The notes beneath the pieces are model-generated. The model did no database searches and had not been told where the DNA came from. It saw only the letters and a list, made by a program, of their open reading frames with translations. The translations under genes were made by a program, and so were the position numbers. This document shows positions 12,356-52,094 of a stretch of 52,106 nucleotides of DNA, in pieces; positions within the stretch are counted from its first letter, which is position 1; each line of letters starts with the position of its first letter. Origin of the DNA: a virus; IMG/VR virus record IMGVR_UViG_3300034106_002470, positions 1 through 52,106 of that record; one strand, given 5' to 3'.

Positions 12356-13846
12356 ATGGGAGGAATTAAACCTATTGGAAGCGAAAAACTTCAAGGAATT
12401 GATAAGATTAGACGAATGATTGAAATTTCTCGTTATAATGAAAATTTTCCACAAAGTGTAAATGAAACAAAATCTACTGAATATAGTATTTCTTTAGCAG
12501 ATGGAAACTTATACAAAATTGAAAAAGAAAGACAAGGGTATATCATCAAAATGGCAATAAATGAGTCCGATTCTGATTATATTGACCCAATGAAAGGTAG
12601 AAAATATTATTCTTCCTATTCACAGGCTTTGAAAAGACTTAACTTAATGGTGAGGGAAATAAATGTCCTTCACGAAAATGAAGAAGGTATCTCACTAATT
12701 GGTGAGCAAAAAAAAAAGTTCATACTAAAGACTAAAAAAAAATCTCAACCAACAGATTTAGGGACTCCACCACCACCTGATTTAGGGGTTCCACCTCCAC
12801 CTGCAGATTTAGGAACTCCACCTCCACCTGCAGATTTAGGGACTCCACCACCACTTGACATGGGTGCCCCACCACCTGACATGGGCGGTGACATGGGTGC
12901 TCCGCCACCTGATATGGGCGGTGACATGGGCTCTCCACCACCTGATATGGGAGGAGACATGGGTGCTCCGCCACCTGATATGGGCGGTGACATGGGCGCT
13001 CCACCACCTGATATGGGCGGTGACATGGGCGGTGACATGGGCACTCCACCACCTGATATGGAAGGAGAGGAACTTGACGACGAAAAACCAAAAGAGAAAA
13101 AAGTTTCGGAAATAAAAAGGATACAAATTTTAGTTGGTAAACTAGCTCAAAAAATAAGATCTTATGAAGAAGAAAGCGATCTTTCTAATAAAGAAGTAAA
13201 ATATATAATCAACTCAATTCTTTCTGCTATAGATGTAGATGTTTTAGATGAAGACGATATTGAACAAATTATTGGTAAACTAGAGGGGGTTGATGATGAA
13301 GGAGAAGAAGAAGAAGATGATTCATTTGGTGATGAAGACACGGAAACACCACCTGAAGTTATGCCAGAACCACCACAAGAACCTGAAATGGCGGAAGGTT
13401 ATGATAATATTGGAGATGCATACAAAGATTTTATGGGAGGAGCATACACATCTTCCGCATCTGAACAACTTGAAGATTATGACCCCGAAGATTATCATTT
13501 AAAAAGAAGAAATAGAAGAATATATAACCCAACTCCTGAAAGATTTACACATGGAACATTTGCGGAGTCTTCAGCTGATAAAGTTTTATCAAAATATTTT
13601 ATTATAAGTGAAGACGAAAAAAATCAATACGAACTTGATAGGGAAAGAAAATCAAATAAAGTTTATCAAAACAATAAACAAAATATTATAAGATTATCTG
13701 AATCTACACACCAATTGGATTCAGCGTTAGAGTATATAAAAGAAAACCCTAGAGTAAAACTTATTGGTTTATCAACAAAGGGTAATTTAATATTTAAAGA
13801 AGGCATTAATGAAGTTAAAGTTACTAAGTTCGGGAAATTAATATGA
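12356..13846 (+). CDS. proline-rich repeat protein, probable head protein, 496 aa
   Basis: Three parts are visible. An N-terminal domain (1-125) begins MGGIKPIGSEKLQGIDKIRR. A low-complexity centre (about 137-235) is made of PPPPADLG units and then repeated GAPPPDMGGDM units. A C-terminal part is acidic (EEEEDD, about 320) and ends in a globular basic segment of about 110 residues. No family is recognised. It lies between the nucleotidyltransferase and terminase genes and overlaps the next gene by 4 bases (ATGA). A structural or assembly-linker role is inferred; the portal C-terminus of this phage has a similar Gly/Pro-rich tract. Confidence 0.7.
   Translation: MGGIKPIGSEKLQGIDKIRRMIEISRYNENFPQSVNETKSTEYSISLADGNLYKIEKERQGYIIKMAINESDSDYIDPMKGRKYYSSYSQALKRLNLMVREINVLHENEEGISLIGEQKKKFILKTKKKSQPTDLGTPPPPDLGVPPPPADLGTPPPPADLGTPPPLDMGAPPPDMGGDMGAPPPDMGGDMGSPPPDMGGDMGAPPPDMGGDMGAPPPDMGGDMGGDMGTPPPDMEGEELDDEKPKEKKVSEIKRIQILVGKLAQKIRSYEEESDLSNKEVKYIINSILSAIDVDVLDEDDIEQIIGKLEGVDDEGEEEEDDSFGDEDTETPPEVMPEPPQEPEMAEGYDNIGDAYKDFMGGAYTSSASEQLEDYDPEDYHLKRRNRRIYNPTPERFTHGTFAESSADKVLSKYFIISEDEKNQYELDRERKSNKVYQNNKQNIIRLSESTHQLDSALEYIKENPRVKLIGLSTKGNLIFKEGINEVKVTKFGKLI
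12765..13062 (+). repeat. in-gene tandem repeats coding PPPPADLG and APPPDMGGDM
   Basis: Near-identical 24-base and 33-base units in tandem. The reverse strand is also open over the repeat in several frames, which is a by-product of the repeat. Confidence 0.9.
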
Positions 13847-19559: not shown

Positions 19560-20273
19560 ATGTTTGGAGAATTAAAATCAAAAATAGAAATTTACTTAAG
19601 TGAGTCGTATAAAAAGGGAACTTTAAAAGATAACTTATTTATATTTGAGGAGTTAGTGTTAAAAAACAAAAACATATCTAGAATATTTTTTTTGTATGAT
19701 GAATTGTCAACTAAAAAAGGTCTTCAAGAAAGTATTGTAAATGAATTTATAAATGAATCAATCACCGCATATGAAAATTTAACTAATAAGGTAAATCCTT
19801 ATAGTTTAAAAGAAATTAAAATGTGGGTTGGTCACATAAAATGTGAAAACAAATATAAAGAAATAGATAATCTGTTTTCAACAGACGTTTTAACTTTAGA
19901 AAGTAAAATTAAGAGTAAAAAAATTATTTGCGAAATTTTAAAAACTAAAGAACAAGAAAAAAAAGAAATCATTAAGGTTCCATTAAAGTCAATGTTAAAT
20001 GTTGCAAATAAAACTGTTGGGAAATTTATTTCCTCATTAAAAGAATCAGAACAAAAAGAACTTAAAAAAATTCTATCAACACCAAAAACACAGTTAATTG
20101 AAAATTACAATGACGCTAAGGATTTGGTTTTAGAAAAGTTAAATGAAAAAAAAAATAATGAAAACGATTCTGACACAATTAACACAATAGATCAAGTTTT
20201 ATTAAAAATTCAAAAAGAATCTTTTTCAGAATTAAACTATTATCATTTAAAACAACTTAAAGAAAGTCTTTAA
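19560..20273 (+). CDS. helical hypothetical protein, possible prohead core component, 237 aa
   Basis: A Lys/Glu-rich, mostly helical protein (start MFGELKSKIEIYLSESYKKG) with coiled-coil-like stretches around residues 110-140 and 170-230. No family is recognised. Its position between portal and prohead protease, and its composition, suggest a core or assembly protein. Its stop codon overlaps the stop of the convergent bS21 gene within TTAA. Confidence 0.6.
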   Translation: MFGELKSKIEIYLSESYKKGTLKDNLFIFEELVLKNKNISRIFFLYDELSTKKGLQESIVNEFINESITAYENLTNKVNPYSLKEIKMWVGHIKCENKYKEIDNLFSTDVLTLESKIKSKKIICEILKTKEQEKKEIIKVPLKSMLNVANKTVGKFISSLKESEQKELKKILSTPKTQLIENYNDAKDLVLEKLNEKKNNENDSDTINTIDQVLLKIQKESFSELNYYHLKQLKESL

Positions 20274-20458
20274 TCTTTATTTAATTTTAATTTTTGAATA
20301 TAAATCGCCTTTTTGTTTTTTTCTCTATTAAGTATAGATGGTTTAATATACTCTTTTTTGTTTAATAAGATTTCATTTTGATTTGTATTAATTAATTTTC
20401 TCTTTAAAAGTTTTAAGGATTTCTCAATACCCCCCTTTTTTACTGTCACGATTAACAT
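20270..20458 (-). CDS. rpsU: phage-encoded ribosomal protein bS21
   Basis: A 62-residue basic protein that aligns along its length with Bacteroidota bS21. It has MLIVTVKKGGIEKSLKLLKRK at the start, the KKEYIKPS motif in place of the usual RR-x-x-F-x-KPS, then LNREKNKKAIYIQKL. bS21 binds the 30S platform near the 3' end of 16S rRNA. In Bacteroidota it helps hide the anti-Shine-Dalgarno sequence. A phage copy could replace the host subunit and bias ribosomes toward phage mRNAs, which here lack Shine-Dalgarno sequences. The gene is alone on the minus strand inside the head block, convergent with the upstream core gene and divergent from the next gene. No Shine-Dalgarno sequence precedes it. Confidence 0.85.
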   Translation of the reverse strand: MLIVTVKKGGIEKSLKLLKRKLINTNQNEILLNKKEYIKPSILNREKNKKAIYIQKLKLNKD

Positions 20459-21035: not shown

Positions 21036-21764
21036 ATGGAAAACTTAAAAATATTGGGACCAAAAGATTCCGGACGTGGGATTCTTGTTGAGTATGACGC
21101 TGGTTATATAGACCCAAATGAACGAAGAAACTTATCTATGATAAGAGAAAATCGAGATATGTTGGATCACTCAAAACCATTTGAGTTTTACGCTGTTTTA
21201 CAAAAATACAATACCCCAAATAGAAACGGAAGAATTTATCCTGAAAAAATATTAAAAAGAGAAGCTGATAATTATAAAAAAATTATTAATAAAGGAACAT
21301 CTCTTTCTGAGTTAAACCATCCTGAATCTTCTCTAATCGATTTAGATAGGGTTTCTCACATGATCACAGAAATATGGTGGGATGGTCCTGTTTTATTGGG
21401 TAAATTAAAATTACTAACAAGTCCAGGTTTTCACGAAAGAGGTATTGTATCAACAAAAGGTGATTTAGCGGCCAATTATTTACGTCAAGGTGTTACATTA
21501 GGAATATCTTCTCGTGGTGTTGGATCATTAAAAAAAGTTGGGGAACAAAATGAAGTTCAGGATGATTTTGAATTAATATGTTTTGATCTTGTATCTTCAC
21601 CGTCTACCCCTGGTGCATACTTATTCACAGATAGAAACGATAGAATGAAATACGAAGAAAATTTAGATGAAGAAAAAAGAATGTCCGTAGAAAGAAATGT
21701 TGGGGAGTCTGGTAATAAATCGCTTGACTTAATGAAAAGATTAACTCATTATTTAGATAAATAA
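21036..21764 (+). CDS. prohead core protease (T4 gp21-like)
   Basis: A 242-residue serine protease of the gp21 type. The core carries SELNHPESS (candidate catalytic His95), LGISSRGVG (candidate nucleophile Ser158 or Ser159) and CFDLVSSPSTPGAYL, a signature of gp21 homologues. It degrades the scaffold and trims capsid and internal proteins at [L/I]xE sites before DNA packaging. Candidate target sites are visible in the capsid protein (INE at 58-60) and in at least seven small proteins of this window. It is directly upstream of the scaffold and capsid genes, as in T4. Confidence 0.93.
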   Translation: MENLKILGPKDSGRGILVEYDAGYIDPNERRNLSMIRENRDMLDHSKPFEFYAVLQKYNTPNRNGRIYPEKILKREADNYKKIINKGTSLSELNHPESSLIDLDRVSHMITEIWWDGPVLLGKLKLLTSPGFHERGIVSTKGDLAANYLRQGVTLGISSRGVGSLKKVGEQNEVQDDFELICFDLVSSPSTPGAYLFTDRNDRMKYEENLDEEKRMSVERNVGESGNKSLDLMKRLTHYLDK

Positions 21765-22115: not shown

Positions 22116-23798
22116 ATGAATTATAACAAAAATGTAGTAGAAGACGCTCTATTTCAAATACGAAATTTGGAAGAGACTCTTCAAGAGAACGCAAAAGGAA
22201 TACTTCAATCTACAATGAGTGAAGAAATCAAACAATTAGTAAAAGAATCTCTTAGAGAACAAGATGAGATTGAAGAACCCGTTGACGACATGGAGGATGA
22301 GGACATGGAAATGGACGATGAGGACATGGAAATGGACGATGAGGACATGGAAATGGATGATGAAGACATGGAAATGGACCCTGAAATGGAAATGGACCCT
22401 GAAATGGATGATGAAACTATTGATATGACAGACGCATCTGATGCGGAAGTTCTTAGAGTTTTTAAAGCAATGGGGGATGATGATGGAATCGTAATAAAAA
22501 AAGAAGGTGGTAATATAAACCTTAAAGACGGTGATAATGAATATATGATTCAATTAGGAGAATCTTACGGTAATAATCGTAATCAACTAATATATGAAAT
22601 AGAAATGGACGGAATGGGTGATGAGGATAATGATTTCTCAGACGAAGATGATTTCTCAGACGAAGATGATTTCTCATACGAAGATGAAGATGAAATGGGA
22701 TTTGAAACTCCTGTGAGAGACGCAATCAGATCACATAAAGGCAGGTTCGAAACTCCTGTGAGAGATGCGATCAGATCTCGTGGAAATAGATTTTCAGAAA
22801 TGGATGATGATGATGATGATGAAGAAACATCATATGAGTTGGAAATAGATGGAGATGATGATGATGAAGAAACATCATATGAGTTGGAAATAGATGGAGA
22901 TGATACTGAAGGTATGGGAAGAATGGAATCTATGGAAGGTATGGATGATGATGGTATGGGAATGGATGATTTAGGTATGGGAATGGATGAATATACTGAA
23001 GGTATGGATTATAATGAAGATATGGACATGAATTCTGTTGAAGATGTAATGGAAGCGGTTAAAAAATCTTTAAAATCTTTAAAATCAAAAGGAACTGAAA
23101 ACCGTAGAGGTCCTAAATTTTCATATGACAAAAAACCTAATATGGGTGGCGGATTTAACGAAAAACGAAAAGAAGCGTTTGGTAAAGGTATTAAAGCCAC
23201 TGGAACAGGAAAACCAAAATTTGAATATAAGGAAGGTATGAACATGGAAAAAGGATCTATGGCTAAAAAAGTTGAGACCAAAGAAGCGGCAAGAACTTAT
23301 GGTAATGGATCTAAAGATGGTAGCCGTGGTTTAAGAAAAGCGAAAACAAACAACAGAAATTATGAATACAGTCCATTTAAAATTTCGGAAAACTATTCAA
23401 ATAATGAAGTTTATTTATTAAAAGAAAAAAATGAAGAATACAAAGCGGCTCTTGATGTTTTTAGAACAAAATTAAATGAAGTTGCGGTATTTAATTCTAA
23501 CTTGGCTTACGCTACAAGACTTTTTACCGAACATTCAACAACAAAACAAGAAAAAATAAATATTTTAAGAAGATTTGATAATCTTGAATCTTTAAAAGAA
23601 TCAAAAAACCTATATAGAACAATTAAAGGTGAATTATCATCTAATGGTTCAACAGGTGAACAAAAAATAAACGAGTCAATTCAAAGAACTGTTAATAAAA
23701 CTGCTGATACAGGATCTTCAGTTAATTTGATTGAATCAAAAACGTATGAGAATCCACAATTTTTAAGAATGAAGGATTTAATGACAAAAATAAAATAA
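22116..23798 (+). CDS. prohead scaffold/core protein (T4 gp22-like position), 560 aa
   Basis: A long, very acidic protein between prohead protease and major capsid, where T4 has gp22. The N-terminal 50 residues are helical. The middle has Asp/Glu/Met repeats (DMEMDDE units, DDFSDED units, two copies of ETPVRDAIRS and two of EETSYELEIDGD). The C-terminal 150 residues are helical and coiled-coil-like (YLLKEKNEEYKAALDVFRTK) and end FLRMKDLMTKIK. Scaffold proteins fill the prohead and are destroyed by the protease. It is much larger than T4 gp22 (about 270 residues) because of the acidic repeats. Confidence 0.8.
   Translation: MNYNKNVVEDALFQIRNLEETLQENAKGILQSTMSEEIKQLVKESLREQDEIEEPVDDMEDEDMEMDDEDMEMDDEDMEMDDEDMEMDPEMEMDPEMDDETIDMTDASDAEVLRVFKAMGDDDGIVIKKEGGNINLKDGDNEYMIQLGESYGNNRNQLIYEIEMDGMGDEDNDFSDEDDFSDEDDFSYEDEDEMGFETPVRDAIRSHKGRFETPVRDAIRSRGNRFSEMDDDDDDEETSYELEIDGDDDDEETSYELEIDGDDTEGMGRMESMEGMDDDGMGMDDLGMGMDEYTEGMDYNEDMDMNSVEDVMEAVKKSLKSLKSKGTENRRGPKFSYDKKPNMGGGFNEKRKEAFGKGIKATGTGKPKFEYKEGMNMEKGSMAKKVETKEAARTYGNGSKDGSRGLRKAKTNNRNYEYSPFKISENYSNNEVYLLKEKNEEYKAALDVFRTKLNEVAVFNSNLAYATRLFTEHSTTKQEKINILRRFDNLESLKESKNLYRTIKGELSSNGSTGEQKINESIQRTVNKTADTGSSVNLIESKTYENPQFLRMKDLMTKIK
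22290..22905 (+). repeat. acid-coding tandem and direct repeats in the scaffold gene
   Basis: Tandem 21-base units code DEDMEMD (22290-22375). Three units code DDFSDED/YED (about 22627-22683). Two 33-base copies code ETPVRDAIRS, and two copies of about 54 bases code DDDDEETSYELEIDGD (about 22803-22902). Confidence 0.85.
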
Positions 23799-23824: not shown

Positions 23825-25747
23825 ATGGGAGCATTATTAGAATCAGGTCTTGTTGGTAACATCGGGTTAAAACACCTTAAAGTTATCAAAGAAGATACAA
23901 TTAACAAATGGGATCGTTTAGGATTCCTTGAAGGTCTTAGAGGCCACCTAAAAGAAAACGTTGCACAATTATATGAGAACCAAGCGTCTCACTTAATTAA
24001 CGAAGCAACATCAGACGGAGCATCTAACGGAGCTTTTGAAACAGTTGTTTTTCCAATCGTAAGAAGAGTATTCTCTAAATTATTGGCTAACGACATCGTA
24101 TCTGTACAAGCTATGAACTTACCTATCGGTAAATTATTCTATTTTGTGCCTAAAATTCAAGGATACGCTAACGGATCTTCATACGACGCTAATGGAAACT
24201 TACAAACTGGAGTACAAGACTCTGGAGGTGAGCATTACGCACCTTATGGAGCACCTAACTCACCTAGTACTCAAACACCAAACAGTGGTTACGGAGATGC
24301 AAGTGCAACTAACTTCCCTTTCAAAAAAAATCTTTATGATTCATTTTACGAAGGTAATGAAGCTGGTTTAGATCCTCCAGGATTGTTCGATTACTCTAAA
24401 GGTAAATGGACCGCAGTTACTGCTACCACAGCTGTACAAGTATGGGCTGGTAGTAGCTTAGTTGATTCATCATTAGACGCTTATTCAGGAAACACAAGAA
24501 AAGTTATTATGAAACTTTGTGGTTTTGCAAATGCTGGAACTGGAAAATTAATTGGTCCTGACGGTAGTGAAATTGATACAGAGTCTTTTCTTTCTGATTT
24601 AAGAATTTATGGAACTTCAGTTATTTCGGGATCTTCAACACCATGTAACGTATTACAAAATGCTGCTGGTCAGTATGTTCCTCTATTATTTAGAGTAGTA
24701 ACTCAAATTTACGGTCAAGGTATTGTTACTCCAACAAGTACTAACACACAAACCGCATTTGGAAACAATGGTAACAACTACAATAACGCATCAACTCCTC
24801 CAACAGGAAATGGTGGAAGTTATAATGACATCTGTTCTCAAAATGGTTGTATATACTTAGAAGTAGATCTTTCTTGTCCTATATGTGCTGATTGTGATTC
24901 AACATCACTTGACGGATACACAGGTAGTACAATCTACTCAGGTACTTCAGGCGGTTCTTTCATAGCTTTCTATAGAAGATATGCAAACCTTGAGTTTGAA
25001 GATGAAATTGGTGAAGTTTCTTTTGACCTTGAGTCAGTTACAGTTTCTGTTACAGAAAGAAAACTAAGAGCACAATGGTCTCCTGAATTGGCACAAGACG
25101 TTGCAGCATTCCATAACATTGACGCTGAAGCTGAATTAACAGCATTATTGTCAGAACAAGTGGCTGCTGAGATTGACCGTGAAATTTTACGTGACTTACG
25201 TAAAGGTGCAGCTTGGAACCTACGTTGGGATTACAACGGATGGAGAAGAATTGCTAACCAAGCTTCTTATACTCAAAAAGACTGGAACCAAACTTTGATT
25301 ACAGCAATTAACCAATTGTCAGCACAAATCCACAAATCTACATTAAGAGGTGGAGCTAACTGGATTGTTGTATCTTCTGAAGTTTCAGCTATCTTTGACG
25401 ATTTAGAATACTTCCACGTATCTAATGCGGCTCCTGATCAAGATCAGTATAACATGGGTATTGAAAGAGTTGGTACATTATCAGGTCGTTACCAAGTTTA
25501 CCGTGACCCTTACTTCCCAGCTAACCAAGTGTTAGTAGGACACAAAGGAACGTCATTGTTAGACACAGGTTACATCTACGCACCGTACGTACCTCTACAA
25601 TTAACACCTACAATGTATAACCCGTTCAACTTTACTCCGATCAAAGGAATAATGACGAGATATGCAAAAAAGATGGTTAACAACCGTTTTTACGGAAGAA
25701 TTACCGTTGATGGTGTTAGAACATTCGATTTAAGAGAATTGAGATAA
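23825..25747 (+). CDS. major capsid protein (T4 gp23-like), 640 aa
   Basis: Shares the gp23 pattern. An N-terminal propeptide (MGALLESGLVG...) contains a predicted protease site after Glu60 (LINE/ATSDG), matching T4 cleavage after Glu65. Then come DIVSVQAMNLPIGKLF, LRAQWSPELAQDVAAFHNIDAEAEL and the C-terminal GRYQVYRDPYFPANQVLVGHKG and APYVPLQLTP segments. It assembles into the head shell. At 640 residues it is longer than T4 gp23 (521); extra sequence lies around 330-380, with a Cys-rich stretch (CSQNGC, CPICADC). Codon use is more GC-ended than neighbours, as expected for the most abundant phage protein. Confidence 0.96.
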   Translation: MGALLESGLVGNIGLKHLKVIKEDTINKWDRLGFLEGLRGHLKENVAQLYENQASHLINEATSDGASNGAFETVVFPIVRRVFSKLLANDIVSVQAMNLPIGKLFYFVPKIQGYANGSSYDANGNLQTGVQDSGGEHYAPYGAPNSPSTQTPNSGYGDASATNFPFKKNLYDSFYEGNEAGLDPPGLFDYSKGKWTAVTATTAVQVWAGSSLVDSSLDAYSGNTRKVIMKLCGFANAGTGKLIGPDGSEIDTESFLSDLRIYGTSVISGSSTPCNVLQNAAGQYVPLLFRVVTQIYGQGIVTPTSTNTQTAFGNNGNNYNNASTPPTGNGGSYNDICSQNGCIYLEVDLSCPICADCDSTSLDGYTGSTIYSGTSGGSFIAFYRRYANLEFEDEIGEVSFDLESVTVSVTERKLRAQWSPELAQDVAAFHNIDAEAELTALLSEQVAAEIDREILRDLRKGAAWNLRWDYNGWRRIANQASYTQKDWNQTLITAINQLSAQIHKSTLRGGANWIVVSSEVSAIFDDLEYFHVSNAAPDQDQYNMGIERVGTLSGRYQVYRDPYFPANQVLVGHKGTSLLDTGYIYAPYVPLQLTPTMYNPFNFTPIKGIMTRYAKKMVNNRFYGRITVDGVRTFDLRELR

Positions 25748-26055: not shown

Positions 26056-26874
26056 ATGGATAGACTTAGTAAAATTATAAAAAAAGTAATAATGGAGACG
26101 ACTAGTGATAGTCGTGGATCTAGAGGTTCATATGTTTCACCATTGTTACCTGGATATAGAGAATTTGATAAAAATCAAATGGCTCCATTTACTGAATTTG
26201 TAAATCAATGGGATGATGCATCTTTAGATCATGATAGTTTAGATGGTAAAATGTCCACAGATCCTAAAACCATACGAAGAAAAGAAAAAAGGGCTGAAAA
26301 AATTTCTAAATTTATGAAAAATAATCCTGACAAATTTGCTTGGTCTGAGGATGCGGGAATTATTAATTCATTACCATTTCATAATACAGATGCCAAACCT
26401 ATAAAAAATTATGACCCAAAAAAAACAACGGTAAGTTTAGATGGGGTTGTTAGACAAATAACAAAAAAAATTAAAGAATCAATTAACGATTATGATTTAA
26501 ATTACCCACCATTAAATCAAAATAGGGTTGAATTTTTAGAAAAAGTTCCATTTAATGAATGGATTGAGATTTCTGACAAAGGAACTATAAATGAAGATTT
26601 GGCAGTTTGGTTTGGTAAAAAGAATAAACCTAAGGGATCTTCTCAACCAAAAGGGCCTTGGGTTAACATTTGTAGTAAAGTTGACGGTAAACATCCTCCC
26701 TGTGGACGACAAGATACCTCTAAAGGTTCATACCCTAAATGTAGAGCCGCTGGTGTTGCTGGTAAAATGAGCGATTCAGCAAAAAGATCTGCTTGTCAAC
26801 GTAAAAGGTCTGCCGAAAAAAATGATACACAATCCGGTAAAGGACAAAAACCTATTATGGTTAGTAATAAATAA
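26056..26874 (+). CDS. probable internal head protein with basic Cys-containing C-terminal domain, 272 aa
   Basis: Start chosen at 26056; the frame is open to 25936 but that stretch overlaps the opposite gene and looks non-coding. The N-terminus MDRLSKIIKKVIMETTSDS has an I-M-E site (12-14), very like the N-terminus of the 27401-27862 protein. The C-terminal 85 residues form a recurrent phage/virus-type domain: GPWVNICSKVDGKHPPCGRQ, then YPKCRAAGVAGKMSDSAKRS, ending very basic. The Cys-His spacing suggests metal binding, and the charge suggests nucleic-acid contact. A packaged DNA-associated protein is inferred. Confidence 0.7.
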   Translation: MDRLSKIIKKVIMETTSDSRGSRGSYVSPLLPGYREFDKNQMAPFTEFVNQWDDASLDHDSLDGKMSTDPKTIRRKEKRAEKISKFMKNNPDKFAWSEDAGIINSLPFHNTDAKPIKNYDPKKTTVSLDGVVRQITKKIKESINDYDLNYPPLNQNRVEFLEKVPFNEWIEISDKGTINEDLAVWFGKKNKPKGSSQPKGPWVNICSKVDGKHPPCGRQDTSKGSYPKCRAAGVAGKMSDSAKRSACQRKRSAEKNDTQSGKGQKPIMVSNK

Positions 26875-27400: not shown

Positions 27401-27862
27401 TTAACAATAAGATCCTGAACAATGTTTTTTACCGTCAAGACCTTTGATTTTTCCTTTACATACTTGAACAGCGTGACCATTTGCATAAGCACTTGGATAC
27501 ACGTCATATTTTGACTTTGCTGATGCCTTACCTCTTGCGCAAAGAGGTGTTCCTGTTTTTTTACGACCTTCCATCATGACCATGTCTTCATCATCCATGT
27601 TCATCTCCATACCGTCTCTTTCCGTCTCATTCATTAAAAAATCAAATACTTGATCCATATTGTTTTTTGCTTCTGAAATATGATCTTGTGCCCAATCGTG
27701 ACCATTATCTAAAATAGATTCAACCATGTCTTGGTCCATATCTAATAATATTTCACATTGTCTTTTCATTTGTTCTAAATTTGAAAAGAACATATATCTT
27801 TGAGATTTTTCTTCGTGTGTTTCTCTAATAACTTTTCTAATAATTTGATTTAAATTTCTCAT
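27401..27862 (-). CDS. probable internal head protein with conserved phage C-terminal domain, 153 aa
   Basis: The N-terminus MRNLNQIIRKVIRETHEEK is almost superimposable on that of the 26056 gene and carries I-R-E at 12-14, a likely prohead-protease site. The centre is acidic and helical with a Met/Asp-rich stretch (DGMEMNMDDEDMVMM). The last 55 residues contain LCARGKASAKSKYDVYPSAY followed by ANGHAVQVCKG, a small basic Cys-containing domain that recurs in structural proteins of unrelated phages. Function is unknown; packaging in the head is inferred. Confidence 0.7.
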   Translation of the reverse strand: MRNLNQIIRKVIRETHEEKSQRYMFFSNLEQMKRQCEILLDMDQDMVESILDNGHDWAQDHISEAKNNMDQVFDFLMNETERDGMEMNMDDEDMVMMEGRKKTGTPLCARGKASAKSKYDVYPSAYANGHAVQVCKGKIKGLDGKKHCSGSYC

Positions 27863-50377: not shown

Positions 50378-50983
50378 TTATTTAGACATTTTTTTAACAT
50401 TAAGAACTTTACCCTCAAACAAATGTTGGCCAACTCTAAATTTAAATAAATCACTACTTTTTGATTCAGACTCAACCAAAAGACCATTTTCTTTTAATAC
50501 ATCTTCTACTGTTTCTCTAACAATATCTCTAATGTCGTTTTTTGATAAACCAATATTTGATTGTTGTGGTTTTTTTTGTGTTTGTTCTTTTATTTCTTCA
50601 GTTTTTGGTGACATATTCATAAGTCTTGATGCTCTTTCAACCAATCCATCACTTAACATTGAGTTTGTGCTCATACCCATATTTGGTTGTTGAATGGGGT
50701 GTTCCATCATTAGTTTTTTTATTTCATCTGGTAACTTTGATTTTGAAATCCTATCTTCTAAAGACGATCCGTCATTCATGTTTTGTGTTGGTCTTTGTTC
50801 TTCTAAAAATTCTTGGGGAAGATTGTATTTTGCAGGAATTGGTTGGTAATCTTCAACCATTGGTGAAGACAAAGTTTCATTTGATGTAAAATTTCTTGAT
50901 TGACCTCTTCCAATGTCATTATGTTTTTCCATGATTTTTTTTGAAACCATTAGTTTTTTTAGTAAATCTGCTTCTGAATTCAT
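50378..50983 (-). CDS. hypothetical protein, 201 aa
   Basis: Ser/Asn/Gln-rich, low-order N-terminal half (MNSEADLLKKLMVSKKIMEK...), then a structured C-terminal 60 residues (SKNDIRDIVRETVEDVLKEN, FKFRVGQHLFEGKVLNVKKM). The C-terminal helix-then-strands pattern recurs in phage structural proteins, but no family is named. It is one base downstream of the WYL-like gene and ends at the terminator. Confidence 0.6.
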   Translation of the reverse strand: MNSEADLLKKLMVSKKIMEKHNDIGRGQSRNFTSNETLSSPMVEDYQPIPAKYNLPQEFLEEQRPTQNMNDGSSLEDRISKSKLPDEIKKLMMEHPIQQPNMGMSTNSMLSDGLVERASRLMNMSPKTEEIKEQTQKKPQQSNIGLSKNDIRDIVRETVEDVLKENGLLVESESKSSDLFKFRVGQHLFEGKVLNVKKMSK

Positions 50984-50984
50984 A

Positions 50985-51386
50985 TTAAGTTAAATTATTT
51001 TCATTATCGAATTTTGCATTTATTAAAACTGTTTCCATACTTCTATCACCATTTGGGTTATAGTTTGGCCTTGGTTCATTAAAGTTTTCTTGAGTTGGTC
51101 TAATAAATTCTATTTTATCAACTCTAAAAAATCTCCAACTAGGAAGAGGTTTTTTACCTAAATAGGCTCTATGAGACGCTCCTTCCCTATCCCATGCTCG
51201 TAAAACAGGATTTCCCCTTTTACTATATCCAAAAGCCACAGGCTCTATCACTCTTAATCCTTTACCTCCTGGTTCATCACCATTGTAGTAAATAACACAC
51301 ACTATTCTATTGCTTATAGCACCTATGATTTGATCTTTAGATGCTACTTCTAATATAAGTTTATTAAGAGTGTTGTAAAGTTTCAT
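50985..51386 (-). CDS. WYL-like domain protein with capsid-targeting-like N-terminus, 133 aa
   Basis: Starts MKLYNTLNKLILEVASKD with I-L-E at 11-13, a candidate prohead-protease site. Residues 20-95 resemble a WYL domain: AISNRIVCVIYYNGDE, RVIEPVAFGYSKRGNPVLRA, then WRFFRVDKIEFI. WYL domains are ligand-sensing modules of bacterial regulators, often acting in anti-phage control. A WYL-like protein possibly packaged in the head and injected would be noteworthy. Family call is moderate; packaging is inferred. Confidence 0.65.
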   Translation of the reverse strand: MKLYNTLNKLILEVASKDQIIGAISNRIVCVIYYNGDEPGGKGLRVIEPVAFGYSKRGNPVLRAWDREGASHRAYLGKKPLPSWRFFRVDKIEFIRPTQENFNEPRPNYNPNGDRSMETVLINAKFDNENNLT

Positions 51387-51670
51387 TATGCGGAAGGTGT
51401 GGTATATGGTTTGTCTGGTTGATATTCGTTAATTTTTATTTCATTTTTTCTTTCTACAATATCAACTGAAGACCCACCATTTATTGTATCTAAAAAAACT
51501 CCAGTTCCTTTACCAAACTCATCACCATCAGAATTTGCATCTTTATTTACTGATGAATATTGGTTTGCAGTTTTATAATCGTTTTTAACTAACAGACTTT
51601 TTCTTTGTAAATCTGCGATGGCCGTTAAATCATTTGCTGGTTGTGAGAAATCTAATCTTTCTGTTTGCAT
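51386..51670 (-). CDS. hypothetical protein, 94 aa
   Basis: Polar protein (MQTERLDFSQPANDLTAIAD...), rich in Asp, Asn and Ser, with a GKGTGVFLDTINGG segment and a disordered C-terminus. No family is recognised. It shares one base with the downstream gene and is one base from the upstream gene, so it is part of the same operon; a minor virion component is possible. Confidence 0.55.
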   Translation of the reverse strand: MQTERLDFSQPANDLTAIADLQRKSLLVKNDYKTANQYSSVNKDANSDGDEFGKGTGVFLDTINGGSSVDIVERKNEIKINEYQPDKPYTTPSA

Positions 51671-51671
51671 T

Positions 51672-52094
51672 TTAAATTATTTTTTTTATTATTTGGTTTA
51701 TTCTGTCTAAATCTTCTCTAATTCTCACATCCTGTACAAATGTGCTGTGTTCTTTAGAAGGTCTTAACATATCGGCAATTGGTCCTAAATCTTTAATTGA
51801 ATTAATATCTATTTTGTCTGGTACAAATTCTTGTTCTATTTCATTTGAAGAACTGTCTTGTTTTCTAAGGTCTTGTATTTTTGACTCAACCCAATTTTTC
51901 ATATAATCAGCACCATTTAATATATATGGAGCGTCAGTGCCATCACCATCATATTTGTCAAACCAATTTTTAATTCTGCCTAACTGTTGATAAGTAACAT
52001 AACCACTATTCCTTAACTCTTCATTTCTTTTATGTCCCTCAATAGAAGTATCCGAATTAGGAATGTGCTCAAAACAAGTTTCAAGATATTCCAT
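51672..52094 (-). CDS. hypothetical protein, 140 aa (start may lie outside window)
   Basis: Helical, polar protein (MEYLETCFEHIPNSDTSIEG...) with a TYQQLGRIKNWFDKY segment and a C-terminal helix ending DRINQIIKKII. The last part resembles the amphipathic N-terminal peptides seen in the internal-head candidates. An ATG at 52094 is a workable start, but the frame stays open to the window edge, so the true start may be further upstream. No family is recognised. Confidence 0.55.
   Translation of the reverse strand: MEYLETCFEHIPNSDTSIEGHKRNEELRNSGYVTYQQLGRIKNWFDKYDGDGTDAPYILNGADYMKNWVESKIQDLRKQDSSSNEIEQEFVPDKIDINSIKDLGPIADMLRPSKEHSTFVQDVRIREDLDRINQIIKKII

What the first reader, a model, noticed from the sequence alone, without database searches (positions are those of the whole stretch)
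50985..51386. WYL-like domain protein that may be packaged in the head
WYL domains sense ligands and control transcription, often of defence systems. Here a WYL-like domain follows a capsid-targeting-like peptide, so it might be injected to act at the very start of infection, perhaps on host defence regulation.
Basis: inference. Interest (0 to 1): 0.58.

Follow-up and report, generated by a model that had tools for sequence, protein, structure and literature searches.

The report
Head-targeted WYL protein of lake phages
A small, very conserved protein of large lake phages looks like the ligand-sensing part of bacterial defence and DNA-damage regulators, but carries what looks like a shipping tag for the phage head instead of a DNA-reading part, so it may travel into the cell with the phage DNA.

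Summary
ORF 50985-51386 (-), 133 aa, has a WYL-type Sm barrel: all 28 aligned relatives hit Pfam WYL, and the predicted fold matches BrxR, CapW, DriD and PafBC first (BrxR Z 11.2). Its first 13 residues, MKLYNTLNKLILE|, resemble the T4 capsid-targeting sequence: I11 and E13 are invariant in 43 of 43 distinct proteins despite synonymous codon changes. The WYL domain starts right after E13; homologues elsewhere align only from residue 16 or later; a second architecture keeps a similar N-terminus with about 140 residues inserted behind it. The phage has a T4-type protease and a major head protein with a conserved LINE|A site. The phage belongs to, or lies close to, the bS21 lake Bacteroidota phages. 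The gene is single-copy in 17 of 17 long records, in fixed synteny, and evolves about as slowly as head genes. That makes a core internal head protein likelier than a fast-changing defence effector. It has no HTH or WCX domain. Packaging, cleavage, injection and ligand are untested. A role in host defence regulation is possible but has no direct support.

The parts
50985..51386 (-). whole ORF, 133 aa, leader plus WYL-type domain
51348..51386 (-). N-terminal leader MKLYNTLNKLILE (residues 1-13), capsid-targeting-like; predicted cut after E13 between bases 51348 and 51347
   Evidence: K2, L3, I11, E13, A15 in 43 of 43 distinct proteins, Y4 in 42, L10 in 40; coordinates
51084..51347 (-). WYL/Sm barrel, residues 14-101
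   Evidence: models m7ee817497a5a and mf411eee4c6e3, VIA-align rows 1-12 WYL regulators
51114..51137 (-). beta4/beta5 loop WRFFRVDK (residues 84-91); R85, F87, R88, D90, K91 match by motif the Arg/Phe loop that PafBC needs for ssDNA binding
   Evidence: invariant columns in A1; literature; residue mapping is inference
51009..51083 (-). family-specific C-terminal segment FNEPRPNYNPNGDRSMETVLINAKF with the YNxxxD(K/R)xM signature
   Evidence: invariant Y109, D114, M117, A124, F126 in an alignment that includes phages of 635-735 kb
51386..51670 (-). upstream neighbour, 94 aa, unknown
   Evidence: present in 84 of 84 loci searched; no database hit
51672..52094 (-). second upstream neighbour, 140 aa as called (frame runs off the window), unknown
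   Evidence: present in 83 of 84 loci
50378..50983 (-). downstream neighbour, 201 aa, unknown
   Evidence: present in 84 of 84 loci
21036..21764 (+). head maturation protease, T4 gp21 type, the presumed processing enzyme
   Evidence: phrog_207 E 4.3e-42; hit to T4 gp21 E 7e-18
23825..25747 (+). major head protein; predicted cut site LINE|A (Glu60, bases 23996-24004 encode INE)
   Evidence: phrog_138 E 1.1e-66; same LINE|A in window, G001, G017, G009, T4 has LTE|A
26056..26874 (+). another leader-bearing protein next to the head genes (MDRLSKIIKKVIME|T), unknown function
27401..27862 (-). another leader-bearing protein (MRNLNQIIRKVIRE|T), unknown function

Best explanation
This is a core internal head protein. 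It is translated from a conserved gene cluster. Its first 13 residues tie it to the prohead core, as the T4 capsid-targeting sequence does, and the prohead protease then cuts after Glu13. The free 120-residue WYL/Sm barrel stays with the packaged DNA and enters the cell with it. There its basic groove binds single-stranded nucleic acid or a nucleotide ligand, most likely on or near the incoming DNA. Shown here: the predicted fold, the leader pattern and its conservation, the domain boundary, the protease gene and a matching head-protein site, synteny and single copy. Inferred: packaging, cleavage, injection, ligand and role. Rough odds: WYL fold 0.95, leader works as a targeting signal 0.65, injected 0.5, groove binds nucleic acid 0.55.
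For: WYL fold. Leader: 43 of 43 distinct proteins keep K2, L3, I11, E13, A15, while E13 uses GAA and GAG and I11 three codons; T4 internal proteins start MKTYQEFIAE|A (T4 record), where positions 4 and 7 target and 8 and 10 process (section read). The leader is separable from the fold: the model without it is more confident (pLDDT 83.0 against 78.9) and aligns to WYL domains from its first residue; homologues in other phages align only from residue 16 on; architecture L046-L048 keeps MRLLESLTGLIIE at the N-terminus although about 140 residues follow before the domain. Protease and head-protein site. Leader-like N-termini are enriched in related records: G001 50 of 367 against shuffled mean 10.4 (max 19 in 500 shuffles), G017 20 of 184 against 5.2. 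Core status: 17 of 17 records with one copy, 81 of 84 loci with the full gene order, identity rank 2, 8 and 6 of 37. Groove: R45, R85, F87, R88, D90, K91 invariant in A1; R45, R85, F87 also in phages of 635-735 kb.
Against: No proteomics or cleavage data. P1' is V, not A or S as in the T4 sites seen. In the window alone leader enrichment is weak. In G009 the control motifs ending in Q or K are also enriched. The cultured Flavobacterium phage MaF61 has a homologue but no such leader at its N-terminus, and no leader enrichment in its genome; the 635-735 kb phage homologues lack it too. The WYL tyrosine, needed for ssDNA binding in PafB, is V61 here. The three gene neighbours are of unknown function.
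Confidence: 0.45

Rival explanations
1. The N-terminal peptide is only part of the domain's first helix or a dimer contact. The protein is never packaged and acts inside the infected cell, for example in late transcription or DNA metabolism.
For: The model draws one helix over residues 3-25. The gene lies a few genes upstream of dnaQ-like and dUTPase-like genes (names by eye). MaF61 and the 635-735 kb phages have the domain without the leader.
Against: The first ten residues have low confidence (pLDDT 53) and the domain is modelled better without them. The N-terminus is kept when about 140 residues are inserted behind it. Conservation sits on the T4 targeting and processing positions.
Confidence: 0.27
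2. Packaged, but a resident structural or DNA-end-binding protein (working like T4 gp2) rather than an agent that acts on the cell.
For: It is conserved like head genes. Weak Foldseek rows to DNA end protectors, E about 0.09 and 0.10. T4 gp2 itself starts MAIFQIINE|S. No T4 gp2 homologue was found by phmmer in G001, G017 or G009.
Against: The A1 profile gives T4 gp2 a negative score. MaF61 has both a gp2 homologue and a WYL homologue, so the two are distinct there.
Confidence: 0.18
3. An injected counter-defence protein: a WYL domain without HTH that soaks up the alarm ligand of, or pairs with, host WYL regulators such as CapW or BrxR.
For: The closest folds include BrxR and CapW. The basic groove is kept while HTH and WCX are missing. 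T4 internal proteins include counter-defence proteins (passages of PMC3012670).
Against: High conservation, fixed synteny and single copy in all records do not look like an arms-race gene; most other leader-bearing proteins of G001 lack relatives in G017 (13 of 50 have one) and G009 (11 of 50). No host target or ligand is known.
Confidence: 0.13

Closest known systems
WYL domain, Pfam PF13280 (PafBC, DriD, BrxR, CapW)
   Same: Sm-like barrel after a short helix; basic beta4/beta5 loop R-x-F-R-x-D-(K/R); fold rows 1-12
   Different: no HTH, no WCX domain; PVL in place of WYL; extra C-terminal YNxxxDKxM segment; N-terminal leader
T4 internal head proteins (IPI, IPII, IPIII) with capsid-targeting sequence
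   Same: short N-terminal peptide with Lys2, Tyr4, hydrophobic residue, Ile-x-Glu; T4-type protease in the genome
   Different: 13 rather than 10 residues, P1' Val; highly conserved body, single-copy core gene; packaging not shown
bS21-encoding Bacteroidota lake phages (PMC9723584)
   Same: bS21 on the reverse strand among TerL, portal, protease and major head protein; chaperone, Clp, PhoH and dUTPase-like genes by eye
   Different: the passages read (Results section) do not mention a WYL protein
WYL-family proteins of MaF61 and of 635-735 kb uncultured phages
   Same: detected by the A1 profile, E 1.1e-6 (MaF61) and 2.2e-12 to 2.4e-11 (three phages of 635-642 kb); the 735 kb records found through one of those; shared basic groove; the YN...M tail shared with the 635-735 kb phages only
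   Different: 220-418 aa, other N-terminal parts, no leader

Membership tests
WYL domain (PF13280) | Sm-like barrel fold | tested here: met
   predicted models
WYL domain (PF13280) | Pfam curated score | tested here: inconclusive
   window 17.4 bits, cut-off 21.8; orthologues 23.9, 22.5 and 22.8 pass; 28 of 28 members hit WYL at E up to 1
WYL domain (PF13280) | conserved basic ligand groove | tested here: met
   R45, R85, R88, K91, F87 invariant in A1; equivalence to PafB R181, R208, R211, R214, F210 is by motif, so inferred
WYL domain (PF13280) | W-Y-L triplet | tested here: not met
   reads P-V-L; the triplet is present only in a subset of WYL proteins, so it is not a defining feature
WYL transcription regulators | N-terminal HTH DNA-binding domain | tested here: not met
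   only about 13 to 20 residues precede the domain
WYL transcription regulators | C-terminal WCX domain | tested here: not met
   133 aa, ends after the barrel and one more strand
T4-type internal head proteins with CTS | 10-20 residue N-terminal propeptide ending in [I/L]xE | tested here: met
   sequence pattern and conservation
T4-type internal head proteins with CTS | T4-type prohead protease in the same genome with matching site in the head protein | tested here: met
T4-type internal head proteins with CTS | protein is in the virion and is cut | not testable with these tools
   needs proteomics

The most novel reading that the evidence does not exclude
Large Bacteroidota phages ship a single-domain WYL barrel in the head as a core virion part. 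It enters with the DNA and binds ssDNA or a nucleotide alarm signal at once, which turns a bacterial DNA-damage and defence sensor fold into an injected phage tool. It would be one of dozens of unrelated proteins that carry head-targeting leaders in these phages.
Probability: 0.3. Interest if true: 0.78.

Novelty: new variant of a known kind. Interest (0 to 1): 0.52.

Why it matters
WYL domains are known as sensors inside bacterial regulators. A WYL barrel with no DNA-reading part, tagged for a phage head and kept as a core gene in lake phages of about 300 kb, with leaderless relatives in phages up to 735 kb, would be a new use of the fold. The leader also gives a simple rule to list candidate injected proteins in uncultured jumbo phages: 50 in one 304 kb contig. 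That makes the question of what large phages inject directly testable by proteomics.

Tried and rejected
PDB sequence searches with the protein and with the A1 profile: 0 hits. NCBIfam: 0. PHROGs: nothing for the window protein; for 28 members only weak matches, best E 0.0067. Bacterial genome contigs: 27 pattern matches, none confirmed as a relative. Pfam WYL hit in T4 (E 0.016) crosses five stop codons and is taken as chance. Relationship to T4 gp2 (DNA end protector) by profile: negative score. PHROGs for the three neighbours: no informative hit. hhalign against E. coli YfjR: only 23 columns, probability 9.7, but it lines up the F-x-x-D-x-I loop; the first region I fetched for an E. coli WYL gene held no gene annotated as a regulator. 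Simple [IL]xE counts in N-termini are weak in the window (19 of 62 against 15.3 expected), so I used a stricter pattern and shuffles; adding Tyr to the pattern was decided after seeing the T4 peptide, and both versions are given. In G009 control motifs ending in Q and K are as enriched as E, which weakens that genome as support.

Literature: searches. In the search listings I saw no paper on a head-packaged WYL protein or on capsid-targeting leaders in Bacteroidota jumbo phages; most subscription papers are not in that library. Read as named sections: PMC9723584 abstract and Results, PMC9026906 section 10. Passages only: PMC7824862, PMC9503650, PMC3012670, PMC9026906 (rest), PMC6789036, PMC11804915, PMC5694885, PMC9958956, PMC13269007, PMC12363816.

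Rows dropped: one search left out L046-L048; one search used 84 of the 127 relatives' loci held; one search kept 80 of 503 relatives; one search used 19 of 28 sequences.

Full report
What is there. ORF 50985-51386 on the minus strand encodes 133 residues. It starts at an ATG that overlaps the stop of the gene before it (TAATG). Among 43 distinct relatives the start is ATG in 42 and GTG in one, so the start is secure.

The phage. The window holds a large terminase, portal, head maturation protease and major head protein of T4 type and, on the opposite strand among them, a ribosomal protein S21 gene at 20270-20458 (Pfam E 6.7e-7). This is the arrangement reported for the bS21-encoding phages of freshwater Bacteroidota, with complete genomes of 293-331 kb (PMC9723584, Results section read). 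Contigs with close relatives of our protein reach 304 kb.

The domain. The window protein alone matches Pfam WYL at E 0.0044, 17.4 bits, under the cut-off of 21.8. All 28 members of alignment A1 match WYL, best E 1.6e-5; orthologues in G001 and G017 pass the cut-off. PADLOC WYL models match at E 5.1e-6. AlphaFold2 gives a helix and a barrel, mean pLDDT 78.9, pTM 0.72. Foldseek against the PDB puts PafBC, BrxR, DriD and CapW first. VIA-align gives BrxR Z 11.2 (2.5 A, 87 residues), CapW Z 10.8 (2.1 A, 85) and DriD Z 10.4 (3.5 A, 94); Sm and Hfq proteins follow at Z 6.8 or less. In the viral library the best rows are uncharacterised phage proteins and one named WYL-domain protein.

The leader. 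Residues 1-13 are MKLYNTLNKLILE. In T4 the internal proteins start MKTYQEFIAE|A (two ORFs in the T4 record); there residues 4 and 7 matter for targeting and 8 and 10 for cutting (PMC9026906 section 10). In our family, 43 of 43 distinct proteins keep K2, L3, I11, E13 and A15; Y4 is kept in 42 and L10 in 40, while positions 6-9 and 12 vary. E13 is written GAA 27 and GAG 22 times among 49 distinct genes and I11 with three codons, so the amino acids appear to be held by selection rather than by recent ancestry. Three contigs (L046-L048), left out of that count, have a 267-residue version with about 140 residues inserted between an N-terminus MRLLESLTGLIIE and the WYL domain. The insert resembles part of another phage protein in G017 (E 1.1e-6).

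Leader and fold are separable. The model of residues 14-133 has pLDDT 83.0, with all five models at 81.4 or more, against 78.9 with a worst model of 58.2 for the full chain. It aligns to WYL domains from its first residue (BrxR Z 10.2, 2.3 A, 83 residues). Homologues in other phages align from residue 16 on.

Processing enzyme and site. The protease at 21036-21764 hits T4 gp21 (E 7e-18). The major head proteins of the window, G001, G017 and G009 share LINE|A where T4 gp23 has LTE|A; T4 gp23 loses its first 65 residues (passages of PMC9958956), which puts the T4 cut at that LTE|A. This supports an [I/L]xE specificity in these phages; it is not a proof of cutting.

Leaders elsewhere. With the pattern [LIVMFY]..[LIVMFY][IL].E in residues 2-22, G001 has 50 of 367 ORFs against a shuffled mean of 10.4 (sd 3.1, max 19 in 500 shuffles); G017 20 of 184 against 5.2; G009 18 of 303 against 8.7; the window 4 of 62 against 1.4; T4 13 of 246 against 5.8; MaF61 5 of 186 against 4.2. 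The earlier pattern without Tyr gives 48, 17, 15, 3, 9 and 3. Control motifs ending in Q, K or D are not, or much less, enriched in G001 and G017, but Q and K are enriched in G009. The 50 G001 proteins form 44 groups by body sequence but share leader families such as MKKVIRLTESDLTRIVRRVINE and MKELIRHIIKE. The WYL leader is not one of these two large classes; it is closer to the T4 type.

Core status. One copy in 17 of 17 long records. In 81 of 84 loci the order 140 aa, 94 aa, WYL, 201 aa, glycosyltransferase-like, dnaQ-like is complete; the other three lack one or two outer genes. By identity the protein ranks 2, 8 and 6 of 37 window proteins shared with all of G017, G001 and G009. It is conserved like a head gene, which argues against a quickly changing defence effector.

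Mechanism. WYL grooves bind ssDNA in PafBC and DriD (abstracts; passages); PafBC needs two Arg in the beta4/beta5 loop, further Arg and the WYL Tyr (passages of PMC6789036 and PMC11804915). Our protein keeps R45, R85, F87, R88, D90 and K91 in all A1 members, and R45, R85 and F87 in phages of 635-735 kb too, but has V61 where the Tyr would be. The residue mapping is by motif and is inference. With no HTH and no WCX domain it cannot act as the known WYL regulators do. The best-supported reading is an internal head protein whose barrel binds nucleic acid or a nucleotide ligand after entry. Packaging, cutting, injection and ligand remain untested.

Noticed in passing
G001 (L139-L154), about 13-17, 42-56, 61-73, 82-94 and 109-111 kb: Dozens of otherwise unrelated proteins share N-terminal leaders (MKKVIRLTESDLTRIVRRVINE, MKELIRHIIKE, MNLQENIRRILRE); 50 of 367 ORFs against 10.4 expected from shuffles. 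Candidate list of head-targeted proteins; one of them is a thymidylate synthase homologue.
   Followed up: partly
window 19560-20273 (+), next to bS21 at 20270-20458 (-): The gene beside bS21 also has a leader-like start (MFGELKSKIEIYLSE|S), as does a G001 protein with a similar start at 134290. It may be the bS21_CN gene of PMC9723584.
   Followed up: no
G017 75968-81315: A run of leader-like proteins, one with a hydrophobic stretch and a C-terminus that by eye resembles a peptidoglycan-binding domain (430 aa, G017 78542); part of it is shared with the insert of the L046-type WYL protein.
   Followed up: partly
L163-L165, L211 (uncultured phages of 635-735 kb): Genes near the WYL homologue start MKYLKLYENF, MKYILSKKIFE, MKYLKRFNEE, MAKLKMFENF: perhaps another leader family.
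   Followed up: no
window 12356-13846 (+) and 22116-23798 (+): Low-complexity repeats: PPPDMGGDMGA in the first, DDEDMEM in the second, which lies where the scaffold gene is expected.
   Followed up: no
T4 record 76061-76885: T4 gp2, the DNA end protector, starts MAIFQIINE|S and so also fits the leader pattern.
   Followed up: no
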